Program-made: the position numbers and the translations under genes
Notes under the pieces: model-generated
Seen by the model: only the letters and a program-made list of their open reading frames with translations
Databases searched by the model: none
What the model was told of the DNA's origin: nothing
Source: Planctomycetota bacterium
Lineage (GTDB): Bacteria > Planctomycetota > PUPC01 > JACPCR01
Length of the DNA stretch: 64,000 bases
NCBI GenBank assembly: GCA_016179685.1
Contig: JACPCR010000056.1
Coordinates: forward strand, 90,241 to 154,240
Direction of reading: 5' to 3'
Shown: positions 58,445 to 64,000 of the stretch, piece after piece
Position numbering within the stretch: position 1 is the stretch's first letter
Layout of the letters: the number at the start of each line of letters is the position of its first letter

Positions 58445-60706
58445 ATGTGCCAGGCGAACATTCGCTCCATCGCGCTGTTTTTGCTCGTTACGTGCGTCGG
58501 ATGGCCTTGCGTCTCGGCGGAGGACCGGGGGTTACGCGTTGAGGTGGAGGCGGTTCTTGGCCAGGAGGCGGATATCCCCCGATATCATGCTTTGGTTATC
58601 GGCATCAACGAGTATGACCACCTGCAGGACCTGCGGAAGGCTGAGGATGACGCGCGGGAGGTCGCCGAGCTTCTTGCCGAGAAATTCGGCTTCGAAGAGG
58701 TGAAGCTGCTGCCGACGGAGGGCGCCAGCAGGGTGACACGAAGAGATATTTTCCGAGAGTTGGACCGGCTGCGGAAGGAGTTGACCGACAGGGACTCTCT
58801 GCTGATTTACTACGCCGGCCACGGGGAATATGACAAGGAGTTGGACATGGGGTTTTGGATTCCTTCGGATGCGAGGCGGACGGTGGACGACGGGCCTGCG
58901 CGGGACGACTGGATTTGGAACTCACAGCTTATGCAGCACATCAAGTCCATGAAGGCCCGGCACATCCTCATCTTGAGCGATGCGTGCTTCAGCGGATCGC
59001 TGTTCCGTTCCAGCACGCCGGACCTATCCGCCAGGGAGCACACCTGGTATCGCCGGGCTTTGACGAAGCCGAGCCGGTGGGGAGTCTCGAGTGGTGACCT
59101 GGAAGAGGTGCCGGATGACAGCGTGTTCACGGTGAAGGTGAAGCAGATATTGCGGTATCCGCCGCAGCCGGTGTTTTCCGCGTCGGAGCTTGGAAATTGG
59201 CTGGTGAAGGAGGTGGCGGAGCATACGCAACGACAGCCGTTGTTCGGTCCACTGAATGACCCGAAAGACATGCGAGAGGGCCAATTCATCTTCCTGGCCC
59301 GGGGACCGCAGCCTGGAAATGGACCGGTCACTCCGCCGGATGAAAAGCCTTCGAAGCCGAAGAATGAGGAGACGACGCGCCCGCGCGTGACGCGGCTTTC
59401 TGCGGACGTGTGGGTGGACAGCGATCCGCAGGGAGCGGAGGTCTACGTGGATGGTGAGGCGAGCGGGAAGAAGACGCCGACGAAGGTGACGATTGACCTG
59501 GCCGCAGTAATGACGCGTGAGGTTAAAATTTCACTCCGCATGGAAGACTACGCGACGAAGGACGTGGCCGTCACGGTCGAGCGGGGCGAGGAGCAGCGTC
59601 TGGAGGCCTTGCGCCTGGAGAAGCGGTCCGGAGAAGTGAGCATCCGCAGCGAGCCCGCAGGTGCGGAAATTTTCGTAGATGGGCAGGAGAAGGCGGCGGG
59701 GAGGACGCCGACGAAATTGAAGGTGGACCTCTCGGAGAGCCGGACGCGGGACGTGAAGGTTTCGGTGCGTCTGAAGCGTTACAAGGCGAAGGACTTGGTG
59801 GTGACGGTGACGCGCGGGGCCGAGGTTGAACTGGAAACCATCCACCTCGAAGAATCGAAGGAGGCCGAGGTTTACACCACCTGGCCGTTCAATGAGACGG
59901 AGGCGAAGCGCCGTCAGAAGGAGACGGCGGACTTCCTGGGCGTGCCGGTGGAGTATGACGAGGAGCTGCCGGGCGGGGTGAAGATGCGGATGGTGCTGGT
60001 CCCTGCGGGCGAGTTTGACATGGGGAGTCCGGATGGGGAGTCGGGCCGGGGCGATTACGAGGTTCAGCACCGCGTCCGGCTCACGAAGCCATTTTACATG
60101 GGGAAGTATGAAGTGACGCAGGCGCAGTGGGAGGCCGTGACGGGGAAGAACCCCAGCAAGTTCAAGGGGGATCAGAATCCGGTGGAGGAGGTGAGCTGGG
60201 AGGACGTGCAGGGCTTCGTCCAGAAGCTGAATGCAAAGGGAGGCCCCGATAAAGCGGGTGAATACAAACGGGTCTATGGGTTGCCGACGGAGGCGCAGTG
60301 GGAGTATGCGTGCCGAGGGGGGACTGATACAGCATATAGTTGGGGAATGAGCTTTAAACAGGGAAAATGTAACGTTGAAAATGATGTCGGAAGTAGTGAT
60401 GATGCGAATGTGGCAATGTTTAAGAGTATGGGGCTTCCGACGGACAGCACTGTTCCAGTTGGGAAATTTTTGGCGAATGCGTGGGGGTTTCATGACATGC
60501 ACGGGAATGTTTGGGAGTGGTGTCAGGATTGGTATGCTGGGTATGAGCAGGGAGAGGTGACTGATCCGATCGGATCAGCCGGCAGCCTCCGGGTCTTTCG
60601 TGGCGGCGGTTGGGGCTACGCCGCGCACAACTGCCGGTCGGCGCTTCGCCCCGCCGCCTTTCGCCGGGCTACCGGGACGACTCCCTGGGCTGCCGCCTCG
60701 TCCTGA
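58445..60706 (+). CDS. DGR target protein: secreted caspase-like protease with PEGA domains and FGE/C-type-lectin fold
   Basis: 753 aa as read. A signal peptide (SIALFLLVTCVGW, cleavage near VSAED) is followed by a caspase-like p20 domain (residues ~45-250). It has His126 in YYAGHG and Cys181 in SDACFSGS, the catalytic pair. Two PEGA domains (~320-390, VDSDPQGAEVYVDG; ~396-465, IRSEPAGAEIFVDG) follow. Residues ~512-753 are FGE-sulfatase/SUMF1-type (VLVPAGEFDMGS, YEVTQAQWEAVTGKNPS, LPTEAQWEYACRGG), the C-type-lectin fold used in DGR targets. VR covers ~712-753. A net +2-nt indel makes the end FRRATGTTPWAAASS; deleting two bases restores RDDSLGCRLVLRSFP with a stop at 60720. Probably periplasmic or surface-exposed, binding variable ligands and gating the protease (inference). 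Confidence 0.9.
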   Translation: MCQANIRSIALFLLVTCVGWPCVSAEDRGLRVEVEAVLGQEADIPRYHALVIGINEYDHLQDLRKAEDDAREVAELLAEKFGFEEVKLLPTEGASRVTRRDIFRELDRLRKELTDRDSLLIYYAGHGEYDKELDMGFWIPSDARRTVDDGPARDDWIWNSQLMQHIKSMKARHILILSDACFSGSLFRSSTPDLSAREHTWYRRALTKPSRWGVSSGDLEEVPDDSVFTVKVKQILRYPPQPVFSASELGNWLVKEVAEHTQRQPLFGPLNDPKDMREGQFIFLARGPQPGNGPVTPPDEKPSKPKNEETTRPRVTRLSADVWVDSDPQGAEVYVDGEASGKKTPTKVTIDLAAVMTREVKISLRMEDYATKDVAVTVERGEEQRLEALRLEKRSGEVSIRSEPAGAEIFVDGQEKAAGRTPTKLKVDLSESRTRDVKVSVRLKRYKAKDLVVTVTRGAEVELETIHLEESKEAEVYTTWPFNETEAKRRQKETADFLGVPVEYDEELPGGVKMRMVLVPAGEFDMGSPDGESGRGDYEVQHRVRLTKPFYMGKYEVTQAQWEAVTGKNPSKFKGDQNPVEEVSWEDVQGFVQKLNAKGGPDKAGEYKRVYGLPTEAQWEYACRGGTDTAYSWGMSFKQGKCNVENDVGSSDDANVAMFKSMGLPTDSTVPVGKFLANAWGFHDMHGNVWEWCQDWYAGYEQGEVTDPIGSAGSLRVFRGGGWGYAAHNCRSALRPAAFRRATGTTPWAAASS

Positions 60707-60708
60707 GG
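60580..60708 (+). repeat. DGR variable repeat (VR)
   Basis: 129 bases, matching TR at 62785-62911. By hand alignment 21 substitutions all fall on TR adenines; non-A positions are unchanged. The 3' 24 bases, from CTGGGCTGCCGCCTCG to CTGAGG, are identical and would act as the IMH. A 2-nt insertion lies where TR has AAT and VR has GCCTT (about 60656-60660). Confidence 0.93.
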
Positions 60709-60781
60709 TCTTTTCCTTGATCCCTTTTTCTCTTTTTCCCTTGGAATTGGCTGCTGGGTTTTACTGCCTGAAGGGAGCGGT

Positions 60782-60828
60782 GGGCTGAGGCCTGCGCCCG
60801 TTGCGTAGCCGGGCGCAGGCCTCAGCCC
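60782..60828. promoter_or_regulatory. 19-bp perfect inverted repeat downstream of VR
   Basis: Arms 60782-60800 and 60810-60828, 9-nt loop, no T tract. It is 74 bases after VR. DGRs often have a hairpin or cruciform just after the IMH that aids retrohoming; this one is further away. A terminator-like or RNA-stability role is also possible. Confidence 0.6.
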
Positions 60829-60936
60829 AAGCGACCGAAAGGCAGCGGCTTGGGATTGTAGGGAGTCCAGAGGGGCAAAGCCCCTCTGGTGCGCGGCGGA
60901 GGGACCGGCAAAGTTTGCAGAATTGGATTCAAGGCG

Positions 60937-61446
60937 ATGTTGGTGAAAGTGCTCACGGTGAAATACGTAGAAGGAGTGGACGGATTTGACGATGCCGCGC
61001 TCCGCAGTTTCTGCCTGAACCACACCGTAATAGATATTCGGGAGGAATTCTTCCTGTTCAGAGGAGTTCCGCATTGGAGTTTTGTGATACGGTACGAGTC
61101 AACGCCTGCTATCTGCGAGAAGAAACCGGAAACAAGAAAGCGTGATGAAGATTGGCGAGAGTGGATATCTAATGAGCAGATGCCGTGTTTCGAAGCATTG
61201 AGGGAATGGCGGAACGACCAGGCCCAACAGGAGGGCATTTCGGCGTACATCATAGCGACCAATCGAATACTGGCCGAGATTGTGCGGCGGCGTCCAACGT
61301 CGTTAGAGGCTCTCAAAGAAATTCGTGGTTTTGGCCCATCGAAACTCAAGAATTACGGCAAGGCGATCCTGGCTCTGTTGAATACTTCGCCACCGCAGAT
61401 GTCAACGCCCACCGAGGAGAGCGCTGATGGAAGCAAACTCCAGTGA
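60937..61446 (+). CDS. HRDC-domain DGR accessory protein
   Basis: 169 aa from the ATG at 60937; a GTG at 60889 would add 16 residues of poor quality. The N-terminal half (VLTVKYVEGVDGFDDAALRSF, HTVIDIREEFFLFRGVPHWS) is beta-rich and unassigned. Residues ~75-165 are an HRDC-type helical domain: CFEALREWRNDQAQQEGI, AYIIATNRILAEIVRRRP, and EEIRGFGPSK-like (LKEIRGFGPSKLKNYGKAIL). HRDC genes are known companions of some DGRs, probably binding nucleic acid. The avd start lies 20 bases inside this gene, so they are coupled. Confidence 0.85.
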   Translation: MLVKVLTVKYVEGVDGFDDAALRSFCLNHTVIDIREEFFLFRGVPHWSFVIRYESTPAICEKKPETRKRDEDWREWISNEQMPCFEALREWRNDQAQQEGISAYIIATNRILAEIVRRRPTSLEALKEIRGFGPSKLKNYGKAILALLNTSPPQMSTPTEESADGSKLQ

Positions 61447-61780
61447 CGATATCCCCATCCTCCAGCGGTGGTATTCCTTCCTGTCCTGGATGATGGACGT
61501 CACCGAGAAGTTCCCGAAACGGATACGATGGTCTTTGACGAGCCGGGTCGAATCGCTATCCGTGGAGATTCTTGAAGATCTGATGGAGGCGAAGTATCGG
61601 CGGAAAAAGTTAGACCTTCTGCTGGCCCTGAACCGGAAGCTGGCCCGGTTGAGAATTCTGCTGCGCCTGTGCCACGAGAAGCAATACCTATCGATGGGAG
61701 CTTACGAGACAGCAAGCCGGCGAGTGGACGAGTGCGGGCAGATGCTGGGAGGCTGGATCAAGGAGCAGAGAGGCGAATGA
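61427..61780 (+). CDS. avd: Avd-type DGR accessory protein (four-helix bundle)
   Basis: 117 aa, almost all helical: IPILQRWYSFLSWMMDVTEKF, PKRIRWSLTSRVESLSVEIL, KLDLLLALNRKLARLRILLR, and MGAYETASRRVDECGQMLGGW. This is the Avd pattern (basic four-helix bundle, pentamer-forming in phage BPP-1) that binds RT and template RNA. Overlaps the HRDC gene (20 bases) and RT (ATGA). The Shine-Dalgarno-like GAGGAGAGCG lies within the HRDC gene. Confidence 0.92.
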   Translation: MEANSSDDIPILQRWYSFLSWMMDVTEKFPKRIRWSLTSRVESLSVEILEDLMEAKYRRKKLDLLLALNRKLARLRILLRLCHEKQYLSMGAYETASRRVDECGQMLGGWIKEQRGE

Positions 61781-62934
61781 AACGCCACGGATACTTTTTC
61801 GAACGAATCGTCGCCTTTGCGAATCTGCTGGCAGCGGCCCAAAGCGCCCTGCGAGGCAAGAAACCCGGCCGCGAGAGCGAAGCTCTCTTCTTGGAAATGG
61901 AGAGGAAACTCATTCGAGTGCAGCGGGAAGTAGCTGAAGGAACCTATCGGCCACAGCGTTATGAGACGTTCTGGGTGCGGGACCCCAAAGTGCGGCGGAT
62001 CTGCGCGGCGCCGTTGCTTGACCGTGTGGTGCATCACGCGATCTGCCGGGTGCTGGAGCCACTTTTCGACTCCTGGCAGATTCCGGACAGCTATGCCTGC
62101 CGCGCAGGCAAGGGACAACACGCGGCGGTCCGCCGCGCTCAGAGCCTGGCGCGGGGGCATCTTTTCTTCGCCAGAGCCGACATCCGCAAGTTTTTTGAGT
62201 CAGTGAACCACGAGGTTCTGGAGACCCTGTTGGTGCGAAAATTCAAGGATGCCCGACTGTTGAGGCTGCTTTCGACCATCATCCGCCATGGGGACCCGGC
62301 ATTGCCGGACGGGCGGGGTTTGCCGATCGGGAACTTGACGAGCCAATATTTTGCCAACTTCTACTTGAATTTCCTGGACCATTTCGTAAAGGAAGAGTTG
62401 AAGGCAGGAGCTTATCTGAGGTACATGGACGACATGGTGTTTTTTTCGAACGATCGGGACACGCTGCACGGATGGTTGTATGAATCGCAGCAGTTCCTGC
62501 GGGAGCGGCTGAAGCTGGAATGGAAGCAATGCGCATGCTTCGTGTCGCCTGTCGCGGTGGGGATGCCGTTTCTAGGATGCCGCGTTTTCCCATCGGTCGT
62601 GCGACTGAAGGGGCCGTCCAGGATTCGATTTTACCGCAAATGGACGCAGCGGGAGAGGGAATGGAATGAGGGCCGGATCGAGGAGGAGCAATTCCTGCAA
62701 TCCGCATCGAGTTTGCTCGGGCATATTCGGCAGATGAACTGTCGCGAGATGTGCCGAGGCTTTTTTTGGGGCGAGGGCCGCAGGCGGCAGCAACCGGGTC
62801 AATCGTGGCGGCAGTTGGAACAACGCCGCGCACAACTGCCGGTCGGCGAATCGCAACAACAATTCGCCGGGCAACCGGAACAACAACCTGGGCTGCCGCC
62901 TCGTCCTGAGGCCGGAACGACGCCCGATGGATGA
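61777..62934 (+). CDS. DGR reverse transcriptase
   Basis: 385 aa. The ATG overlaps the avd stop; a longer upstream frame is the shadow of avd. RT motifs: RYETFWVRDPKVRRICAAPL, DRVVHHAICRVLEPLF, DSYACRAGKGQHAA, the first catalytic Asp in ARADIRKFF (about 135), RGLPIGNLTSQYFANFYLN (DGR/retron-like), and YLRYMDDMVFF with the catalytic YMDD (216-219). It makes error-prone cDNA from TR RNA. The last ~50 residues (RRRQQPGQSWRQLEQ...) are encoded by TR in another frame, so the functional RT may end earlier, around GHIRQMNCREMCRGF. Confidence 0.94.
   Translation: MKRHGYFFERIVAFANLLAAAQSALRGKKPGRESEALFLEMERKLIRVQREVAEGTYRPQRYETFWVRDPKVRRICAAPLLDRVVHHAICRVLEPLFDSWQIPDSYACRAGKGQHAAVRRAQSLARGHLFFARADIRKFFESVNHEVLETLLVRKFKDARLLRLLSTIIRHGDPALPDGRGLPIGNLTSQYFANFYLNFLDHFVKEELKAGAYLRYMDDMVFFSNDRDTLHGWLYESQQFLRERLKLEWKQCACFVSPVAVGMPFLGCRVFPSVVRLKGPSRIRFYRKWTQREREWNEGRIEEEQFLQSASSLLGHIRQMNCREMCRGFFWGEGRRRQQPGQSWRQLEQRRAQLPVGESQQQFAGQPEQQPGLPPRPEAGTTPDG
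62785..62911 (+). repeat. DGR template repeat (TR)
   Basis: 127 bases at the 3' end of the RT ORF, rich in AAC codons. In the target frame it reads GSNRVNRGGSWNNAAHNCRS and continues ANRNNNSPGNRNNNLGC. It matches VR except at adenines and the 2-nt indel. Three in-frame runs of Asn codons are the mutable positions. Confidence 0.94.
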
Positions 62935-63702: not shown

Positions 63703-63902
63703 GTTGGAGTGACGCCTTGAGGCGTTGCGAATTGGAGTGACGCCTTGAGGCGTTGAACTACTCGGACAACGGCTAAAGCCGTCACTCCAACTTTGGTTGG
63801 GGCCGTCACGCCGCGTTAGGAGTGACGCCTTGAGGCGTTGCGGGTTGGAGTCACGCCTTGAGGCGTTGAACTACTCGGACAACGGCTAAAGCCGTCACTC
63901 CA
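63703..63902. repeat. Tandem-like block of GACGCCTTGAGGCGTT palindromes
   Basis: GGAGTGACGCCTTGAGGCGTTG occurs several times. GTTGAACTACTCGGACAACG followed by GCTAAAGCCGTCACTCC occurs at 63752 and 63865, 113 bases apart. CGCCTTGAGGCG is a palindrome. The region 63568-64000 has no gene. Confidence 0.75.
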
Positions 63903-64000
63903 ACGAATAGCGTTTTATCGCCTCGTCGTTCGGCGACGAGCGATAAAACGTGGTTGAACTAAGCCGCTGAGGTACGGGGTGTGCGGTGAGTGATTGGGGA

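What the first reader, a model, noticed from the sequence alone, without database searches (positions are those of the whole stretch)
58445..62934. Complete DGR that diversifies a secreted caspase-like / PEGA / FGE-fold protein
Seen: a protein with a caspase His/Cys dyad, two PEGA domains and an FGE/C-type-lectin domain carries a VR at its 3' end. Downstream are HRDC, avd, RT with YMDD, and a TR whose adenines alone differ from VR. Known: DGRs mutate C-type-lectin-fold tips, and FGE-like folds are one such target class. Inference: the lectin tip is a rapidly evolving recognition surface that controls a self-destruct or signalling protease in the periplasm or outside, possibly a polymorphic defence or sensing system. 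The PEGA spacers between sensor and protease are an unusual layout.
Basis: partly seen in the sequence, partly recalled or inferred. Interest (0 to 1): 0.95.

Follow-up and report, generated by a model that had tools for sequence, protein, structure and literature searches.

The report
Self-rewriting gene for exported caspase sensor
This bacterial locus carries a reverse-transcriptase cassette whose template differs from the tail of a neighbouring gene almost only at adenines; that gene encodes a caspase-like protease joined to a lectin-fold domain and is predicted to be exported, so the cell likely keeps rewriting the part that would sense a target, although the copy in this assembly is out of frame inside that very tail.

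Summary
A complete diversity-generating retroelement (DGR) is present: target, HRDC, Avd, RT and a TR lying inside the 3' end of the RT frame. Over the repeat, 21 of 22 substitutions fall on TR adenines. The target has a likely signal peptide, a caspase domain with intact His126/Cys181, two PEGA domains and an FGE (C-type-lectin-fold) domain whose top structural match is the DGR protein TvpA.

It shifts about the last 19 residues out of frame, so this allele lacks the final lectin strand while TR stays intact. A 20-bp perfect inverted repeat 3' of VR resembles known DGR target-site hairpins.

The layout recurs. Ten Pfam-confirmed caspase targets with adenine-biased VRs occur in five other genomes, six with PEGA, some as two- or three-gene arrays on one TR. 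One pair carries Lcl_C instead of FGE.

Caspase-FGE fusions, DGR-diversified orthocaspases and exported DGR sensors are each in print; the caspase-PEGA-lectin class appears to be a new variant. Sensing, protease activity, export and current diversification here are untested.

The parts
58445..60706 (+). DGR target gene, 753 aa: likely signal peptide, caspase (C14), two PEGA, FGE/C-type-lectin domain; frameshifted near its 3' end
58445..58519 (+). likely Sec signal peptide (about 25 aa; cleavage after VSA guessed by eye)
   Evidence: max 10-aa hydropathy 3.07, no charge in that stretch; N-termini of aligned homologues (by eye)
58586..59029 (+). caspase domain (residues 48-195 in Pfam); His126 codon 58820-58822, Cys181 codon 58985-58987
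   Evidence: dyad invariant in 29 aligned sequences; MALT1 and metacaspase folds
59405..59605 (+). PEGA domain 1 (residues 321-387)
59633..59854 (+). PEGA domain 2 (limits approximate, by eye; Pfam reports two stretches)
   Evidence: low-confidence model region
59987..60649 (+). FGE-sulfatase / C-type-lectin-fold domain (residues 515-735)
60576..60708 (+). variable repeat (VR); 21 of 22 substitutions at TR adenines
60644..60660 (+). stretch holding the 2-nt insertion of VR relative to TR (aligner puts it at 60649-60650; exact place ambiguous); shifts the frame
60684..60708 (+). 25-nt 3' end identical in VR and TR (IMH-like; IMH named from the literature)
   Evidence: PMC4891356 passages
60781..60829 (+). 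20-bp perfect inverted repeat, 9-nt loop TTGCGTAGC: candidate DGR target-site hairpin/cruciform
   Evidence: PMC3240598 passages
60937..61446 (+). HRDC-domain accessory protein
   Evidence: HRDC accessory in T. denticola DGRs
61427..61780 (+). Avd accessory protein
61777..62934 (+). DGR reverse transcriptase, YMDD; about its last 50 residues are the TR read as protein
62781..62911 (+). template repeat (TR), inside the RT frame; in the target's frame it encodes an intact asparagine-rich tip (13 AAY codons)

Best explanation
The locus is a complete diversity-generating retroelement whose template differs almost only at adenines from the lectin-fold tip of a caspase-PEGA-FGE protein, so it likely rewrites that tip, and the protein is predicted to be exported and to act as a receptor in which ligand binding at the tip would switch on the caspase. 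Shown: cassette anatomy, adenine-specific TR/VR differences, domain order, intact catalytic dyad, recurrence of the layout in other genomes with VR copies that differ from each other, and a 2-nt frameshift inside the VR of this copy. Inferred: export and placement in the periplasm or at the surface, ligand binding by the VR face, control of the protease by that binding, and a role in sensing invaders or neighbouring cells. The present allele is predicted to lack a working tip; since TR is intact, a later retrohoming event could replace the VR.
Against: No reads, expression or activity data. The target copy is frameshifted in VR, so it may be a dead allele or an assembly artefact. Export rests on hydrophobic N-termini only. 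PEGA2 is modelled with low confidence (block means about 47-62), and pTM is 0.44 and 0.43 for the two models, so the domain arrangement is not predicted and nothing shows how tip and protease would communicate. In 392 genomes of the own phylum no other listed match to the target reached the caspase part; nearly all cover the FGE part (at most two candidates scored per genome), so the layout looks rare there. No STAND, MoxR or vWA partner in the target or in 8 flanking ORFs scanned.
Confidence: 0.55

Rival explanations
1. The variable protein is a surface adhesin or nutrient-binding protein; the caspase domain only matures, sheds or recycles the protein and is not a death or alarm effector.
For: [quoted passage not shown] TvpA is a predicted lipoprotein thought to mediate interactions (PMC4891356 passages).
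Against: In HSG2 two targets share PEGA and FGE (80% identity over that part) but carry different caspases, and caspases also pair with Lcl_C tips, which looks like a shared protease output rather than a maturation step.
Confidence: 0.2
2. The exported protein is an offensive tool: a lectin tip that docks a protease on competitor or prey cells, diversified to follow changing surfaces.
For: Likely signal peptides on the window protein and 11 related targets; the variable tip sits at the C-terminus.
Against: PEGA domains are described as peptidoglycan-associating (PMC7159879 passage), which favours retention in the own envelope; no secretion partner was recognised in the 8 flanking ORFs scanned.
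Confidence: 0.1
3. The target at this locus is a decaying pseudogene: the frameshift in VR is permanent and the DGR no longer works here.
For: 2-nt insertion in VR; only one VR of this TR found in the genome; fragments of other RT/TR copies elsewhere (C119, C127).
Against: The rest of the gene, Avd, HRDC, RT and TR are open, 21 of 22 substitutions are at adenines, and the indel lies in the mutagenised core rather than elsewhere in the 2.2-kb gene.
Confidence: 0.2
4. The frameshift is an assembly artefact from merging several VR variants in a mixed population; the true genes are in frame.
For: The genome is in 137 contigs and one contig (C119) starts inside a TR-like copy; hypervariable stretches are hard to assemble.
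Against: No reads to test it. Frame-shifting indels between TR and VR were also counted in 7 of 108 VRs of other loci, two of these at contig edges, but those are mostly metagenome assemblies too.
Confidence: 0.35

Closest known systems
Treponema denticola TvpA DGR (HRDC accessory, FGE-fold variable lipoprotein)
   Same: FGE/C-type-lectin-fold target with C-terminal VR and an HRDC accessory; TvpA is the top structural match
   Different: No caspase or PEGA is mentioned for TvpA in the passages read; the window has Avd as well as HRDC
Cyanobacterial DGR targets with orthocaspase-like N-termini (PMC7517822)
   Same: Caspase-type peptidase domain grafted on a DGR-diversified C-type-lectin domain
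   Different: Most are predicted cytosolic, with some membrane or secreted cases; the term PEGA does not occur in the text; different phylum
DGR-diversified conflict-system sensors of multicellular bacteria (PMC10907252; PMC7159879)
   Same: Variable FGE/CLec sensor coupled to protease effectors, with sensing and cell death proposed. One target (DGR 2) holds a caspase-like CHAT domain and a TIR domain in the same protein, some others have N-terminal peptidase domains, and one (DGR 5) has a signal peptide
   Different: Those loci mostly have STAND NTPases or MoxR/vWA partners and adaptor domains, none of which was found in or beside the target here; PEGA does not occur in PMC10907252
Metacaspase-FGE-sulfatase proteins (PMC3501461)
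   Same: Same two domains in one protein (33 of 671 sequences in that survey)
   Different: No DGR link in the passages read; the term PEGA does not occur

Membership tests
Diversity-generating retroelement (DGR) | TR/VR near-repeat with substitutions at TR adenines | tested here: met
   21 of 22 substitutions at A
Diversity-generating retroelement (DGR) | RT gene of the DGR type beside TR | tested here: met
   RVT_1; shares GNLTSQ and YMDD with five RTs fetched as relatives; 90 of 119 loci fetched mainly by RT similarity hold a TR/VR pair with at least 75% of mismatches at adenines. Of the five aligned RTs one lies beside a clear pair (L073) and one beside a weaker one (L080, 67%). That the SQ motif marks DGR RTs is recalled
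Diversity-generating retroelement (DGR) | Avd accessory | tested here: met
   NF033474 105.6 bits, cut-off 80
Diversity-generating retroelement (DGR) | VR in a C-type-lectin-fold domain at the target's C-terminus | tested here: met
   FGE domain, TvpA top match; in this allele the last strand is lost to the frameshift
Diversity-generating retroelement (DGR) | Hairpin/cruciform 3' of VR | tested here: inconclusive
   20-bp perfect inverted repeat 72 nt 3' of VR; longer and farther away than the 7-10 bp stems at 4-34 bp described for phage DGRs; function untested
Diversity-generating retroelement (DGR) | Active mutagenic retrohoming | not testable with these tools
   No reads or cultures; only indirect evidence from VR copies in relatives
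Caspase / Peptidase C14 | Domain match over the curated cut-off and His/Cys dyad | tested here: met
   60.8 bits against 21.4; H126 and C181 invariant in 29 aligned sequences
Caspase / Peptidase C14 | Proteolytic activity | not testable with these tools
   needs an assay
Formylglycine-generating enzyme | Active-site Cys pair (residues 336 and 341 in the human enzyme) | tested here: not met
   The tip reads RGGGWGYAAHNCRSALR, with one Cys only; the two human Cys are named in PDB titles, their role and place are recalled. It shares the fold, not that active site
VMAP/MoxR or STAND conflict system | MoxR ATPase, vWA or STAND NTPase in or beside the target | tested here: not met
   No such domain in the target or in 8 flanking ORFs scanned, which are GroEL, HEAT, DnaJ, GrpE, zinc-ribbon, ankyrin, mandelate-racemase-like and one without a match; not searched in window 1-49400 or the rest of the genome

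The most novel reading that the evidence does not exclude
A bacterial, exported counterpart of a self-rewriting inflammatory-caspase receptor: arrays of envelope caspases that share one template and keep re-drawing their recognition tips, and in which frameshifts made during copying act as reversible off-switches. A lethal or self-reactive receptor is silenced by an out-of-frame VR copy and brought back by the next copy from the intact template.
Probability: 0.12. Interest if true: 0.9.

Novelty: new variant of a known kind. Interest (0 to 1): 0.62.

Why it matters
The 2024 PNAS study of DGR sensors leaves open how a sensor that mutates itself avoids attacking its own cell (PMC10907252 passage). 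Here protease and variable tip are in one polypeptide that is likely exported, and caspase-type targets in three genomes (window, L090, L118) carry frameshifts inside the VR. That makes two ideas testable: keeping the effector outside the cytoplasm, and silencing it by frameshift. The arrays in Desulfobacterales and in G770 (two or three caspases on one template) are natural material for such tests. If the caspase is active and controlled by the tip, this would be a very simple receptor-to-protease layout with built-in receptor evolution.

Tried and rejected
Frameshift enrichment in caspase targets: at first 3 of 8 caspase VRs against 5 of 101 others (Fisher p 0.012). After adding L241 (2), L252 (3) and the VR of the broken HSG2 copy it is 3 of 14 against 5 of 100 (p 0.058). 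The test was thought of after seeing the data, two of the five others are partial VRs at contig edges (L138, L147), duplicates (L077/L114, L121/L171) were not removed, and L102 counts as caspase only by my own profile (no Pfam C14). I do not claim it.

Remote VRs of this TR elsewhere in the genome: six hits besides the TR itself. One is the local VR. One (C119, 97%) is the 3' end of another TR-like copy at a contig start. The other four (C69, C108, C102, C127) differ at many non-A sites (alignments, by eye) and were rejected as VRs of this TR; C127 looks like a broken RT/TR remnant.

Own-genome paralogue C104 (caspase-FGE, L224): no TR match and no TR/VR pair, so not taken as a target. Of 20 regions, new caspase VRs came from one (L241; L239 covers L108 again); of 20, from one (L252). 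L245 has caspase-PEGA-FGE beside a short RT frame but no TR found. In the protein search 3 of the 119 listed hits other than the window's own carry C14, PEGA and FGE (P0002, P0008, P0025, 120 of 334 listed); their DGR context could not be fetched.

Rfam: no match in the window. A first TR/VR script printed nothing and was replaced with other BLAST settings; one script failed and was rerun. My GNA-loop hairpin scan does not list the window among the rows printed, since its 9-nt loop breaks the pattern; the plain stem scan does, but that scan had only shuffles as control.

Foldseek was run on the window model only; VIA-align 2 on the L108 model only.
Full report
OBSERVATION. The region holds, in order on the + strand, a 753-aa ORF (58445-60706), an HRDC protein (60937-61446), Avd (61427-61780) and a reverse transcriptase (61777-62934). 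The 131-nt TR (62781-62911) lies inside the RT frame; the five relatives' RTs aligned with it end about 50 residues earlier. VR (60576-60708) differs from TR at 22 positions, 21 of them TR adenines; TR has 31 adenines (hypergeometric P about 1e-15). TR has 13 AAY codons in the target's frame; changes at their adenines give NNY codons, none of which is a stop (codon table). The only non-A substitution is near the 5' edge.

FRAMESHIFT. VR is 2 nt longer than TR. The insertion is in the mutated core (aligner position 60649-60650), about 19 codons before the ORF's stop. Upstream of it the ORF reads RGGGWGYAAHNCRSALR. Downstream the ORF frame gives RRATGTTPWAAASS, while another frame gives GYRDDSLGCRLVLR, like the GFR strand at the end of 7 of 8 aligned relatives (the eighth is partial). 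AlphaFold2 gives residues 737-753 pLDDT under 50, whereas residues 701-744 of the intact HSG2 relative have block means of 73-92. The allele as assembled therefore should not make the full lectin fold. No reads were available to decide between a real allele and an artefact.

CIS ELEMENTS. VR and TR share 25 identical nt at the 3' end. A 20-bp perfect inverted repeat (60781-60829, loop TTGCGTAGC) lies 72 nt 3' of VR, the longest stem among 107 VRs scanned against shuffles. In a separate scan, stems of 9 or more pairs closed by GNA or GNNA loops were found 3' of 10 of 108 VRs, 3' of 0 of 101 TRs and in 0 of 88 upstream controls; the window is not among these ten. Guo et al. 2011 showed that a hairpin 3' of VR is needed for efficient retrohoming in a phage DGR, with 7-10 bp stems and GRNA loops in phage DGRs (PMC3240598 passages). 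The window's element is longer and farther away, so it is a candidate only.

TAXON. The window is therefore taken as Planctomycetota (inferred). RT relatives at E up to 1e-30 occur in 38 of 392 genomes drawn from that phylum. Searching 392 genomes of the phylum with the target, 92 match at 1e-40, but apart from the window itself the listed matches start at residue 359 or later, mostly within FGE; none reaches the caspase part (at most two candidates scored per genome). The layout looks rare in its own phylum.

RECURRENCE. I scanned 119 fetched loci (80 from the one genome-contig scan, 39 from the genome search and the fetch from genomes; some duplicates) and found 107 VR-bearing ORFs in 90 loci (at least 75% of mismatches at template adenines). 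Seven ORFs matched my caspase profile; Pfam confirmed C14 in 6 of the 7 and PEGA in 4. Two further sets of 20 regions each added L241 and L252. Pfam-confirmed caspase DGR targets outside the window are therefore: HSG2 two, HSG16 four (two FGE, two Lcl_C), G770 two plus one gene split between two frames, an Acidobacteria MAG one, a Kuenenia-labelled MAG one. That is 10 plus a split gene in five genomes, 6 of them with PEGA; 81-100% of their TR/VR mismatches are at adenines. HSG2 also has a third copy broken upstream of VR. At the HSG16 Lcl_C locus my RT profile matches only part of the frame, so that RT may be incomplete. Histidine and cysteine motifs are present in these proteins by eye. Other DGR targets of the same phylum carry other N-termini (kinase-like with a PEGA-like stretch, NACHT-, SIR2- or TIR-like, read by eye), so the FGE tip is a shared module.

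DIVERSIFICATION. On one TR, three HSG2 VRs differ from each other at 19 of 34 adenine sites and are changed at 4 of 97 other sites; the two HSG16 FGE VRs at 19 of 31 (3 of 110 others); the two Lcl_C VRs at 16 of 32 (0 of 78 others). This shows repeated adenine-directed rewriting of caspase targets in relatives, not at the window locus itself.

MECHANISM. Most likely the caspase-PEGA-FGE protein is an exported receptor: the VR face binds a ligand outside the cytoplasm and this alters the protease. The DGR supplies new tips. Export and all later steps are inference. No STAND, MoxR or vWA partner was found in the target or in 8 flanking ORFs; window 1-49400 was only listed as ORFs.

LITERATURE. 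Seen: passages of PMC7159879, PMC7517822, PMC10907252, PMC8144416, PMC4891356, PMC3240598, PMC3501461, PMC3521204 and PMC4605624; other papers only as search listings. Caspase-FGE fusions were reported in 2012 (33 of 671), orthocaspase DGR targets in cyanobacteria in 2020, and in 2024 a DGR target with a caspase-like CHAT and a TIR domain and another with a signal peptide. Searches: DGR with caspase and FGE-sulfatase, none; DGR with caspase and PEGA, one paper, whose PEGA passages concern other systems; DGR with caspase, 11 papers, 10 listed, of which four are on DGRs or bacterial conflict and death systems by title. The held library has no preprints and lacks most subscription papers, so 'not in print' is not shown.

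FRAMESHIFT IDEA. Eight of 109 VRs have indels that shift frame; three are caspase targets (window, L090, L118), each with the indel inside VR. With all 14 caspase VRs the contrast is 3 of 14 against 5 of 100 (p 0.058, post hoc). It is kept as an idea only.

VERDICT. A real and complete DGR with a recurring target class that combines known parts in a new way: a new variant of a known kind, with a broken allele at this locus.

Noticed in passing
G000:C119:3-87 (L008): A contig begins inside a TR-like copy, 98% identical to window 62845-62929, with a different downstream flank: a likely second DGR cassette lost at the contig end.
   Followed up: partly
G000:C127:39429-39680 (L012): RT/TR-like remnant with stop codons: perhaps an older dead DGR.
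   Followed up: no
L241 5487-10811 (Desulfobacterales HSG16): A caspase-PEGA and a caspase protein whose variable tip is Lcl_C instead of FGE, on one TR: the caspase part combines with two kinds of variable tip.
   Followed up: partly
L252 2998-11563 (G770:C496): One TR serves three caspase-type targets with different caspase sequences, one of them split between two frames.
   Followed up: partly
G000:C104:215431-217671 (L224): Own-genome caspase-FGE paralogue with extra C-terminal sequence and no TR match: an undiversified relative.
   Followed up: yes
62781-62911: TR is read as the C-terminal tail of the RT. In relatives 10 of 101 TRs lie wholly inside the RT frame and 22 overlap it.
   Followed up: partly
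L081 4628-7285: DGR target with a kinase-like N-terminus and a PEGA-like stretch, with a second target of similar kind on the other strand (domains read by eye).
   Followed up: no
63706-63904: 86-nt direct repeat (97%) with internal inverted repeats downstream of the DGR.
   Followed up: no
L139, L182 and others, 3' of VR: Stems closed by GNA loops 3' of many VRs, differing from the GRNA tetraloops described for phage DGRs.
   Followed up: partly
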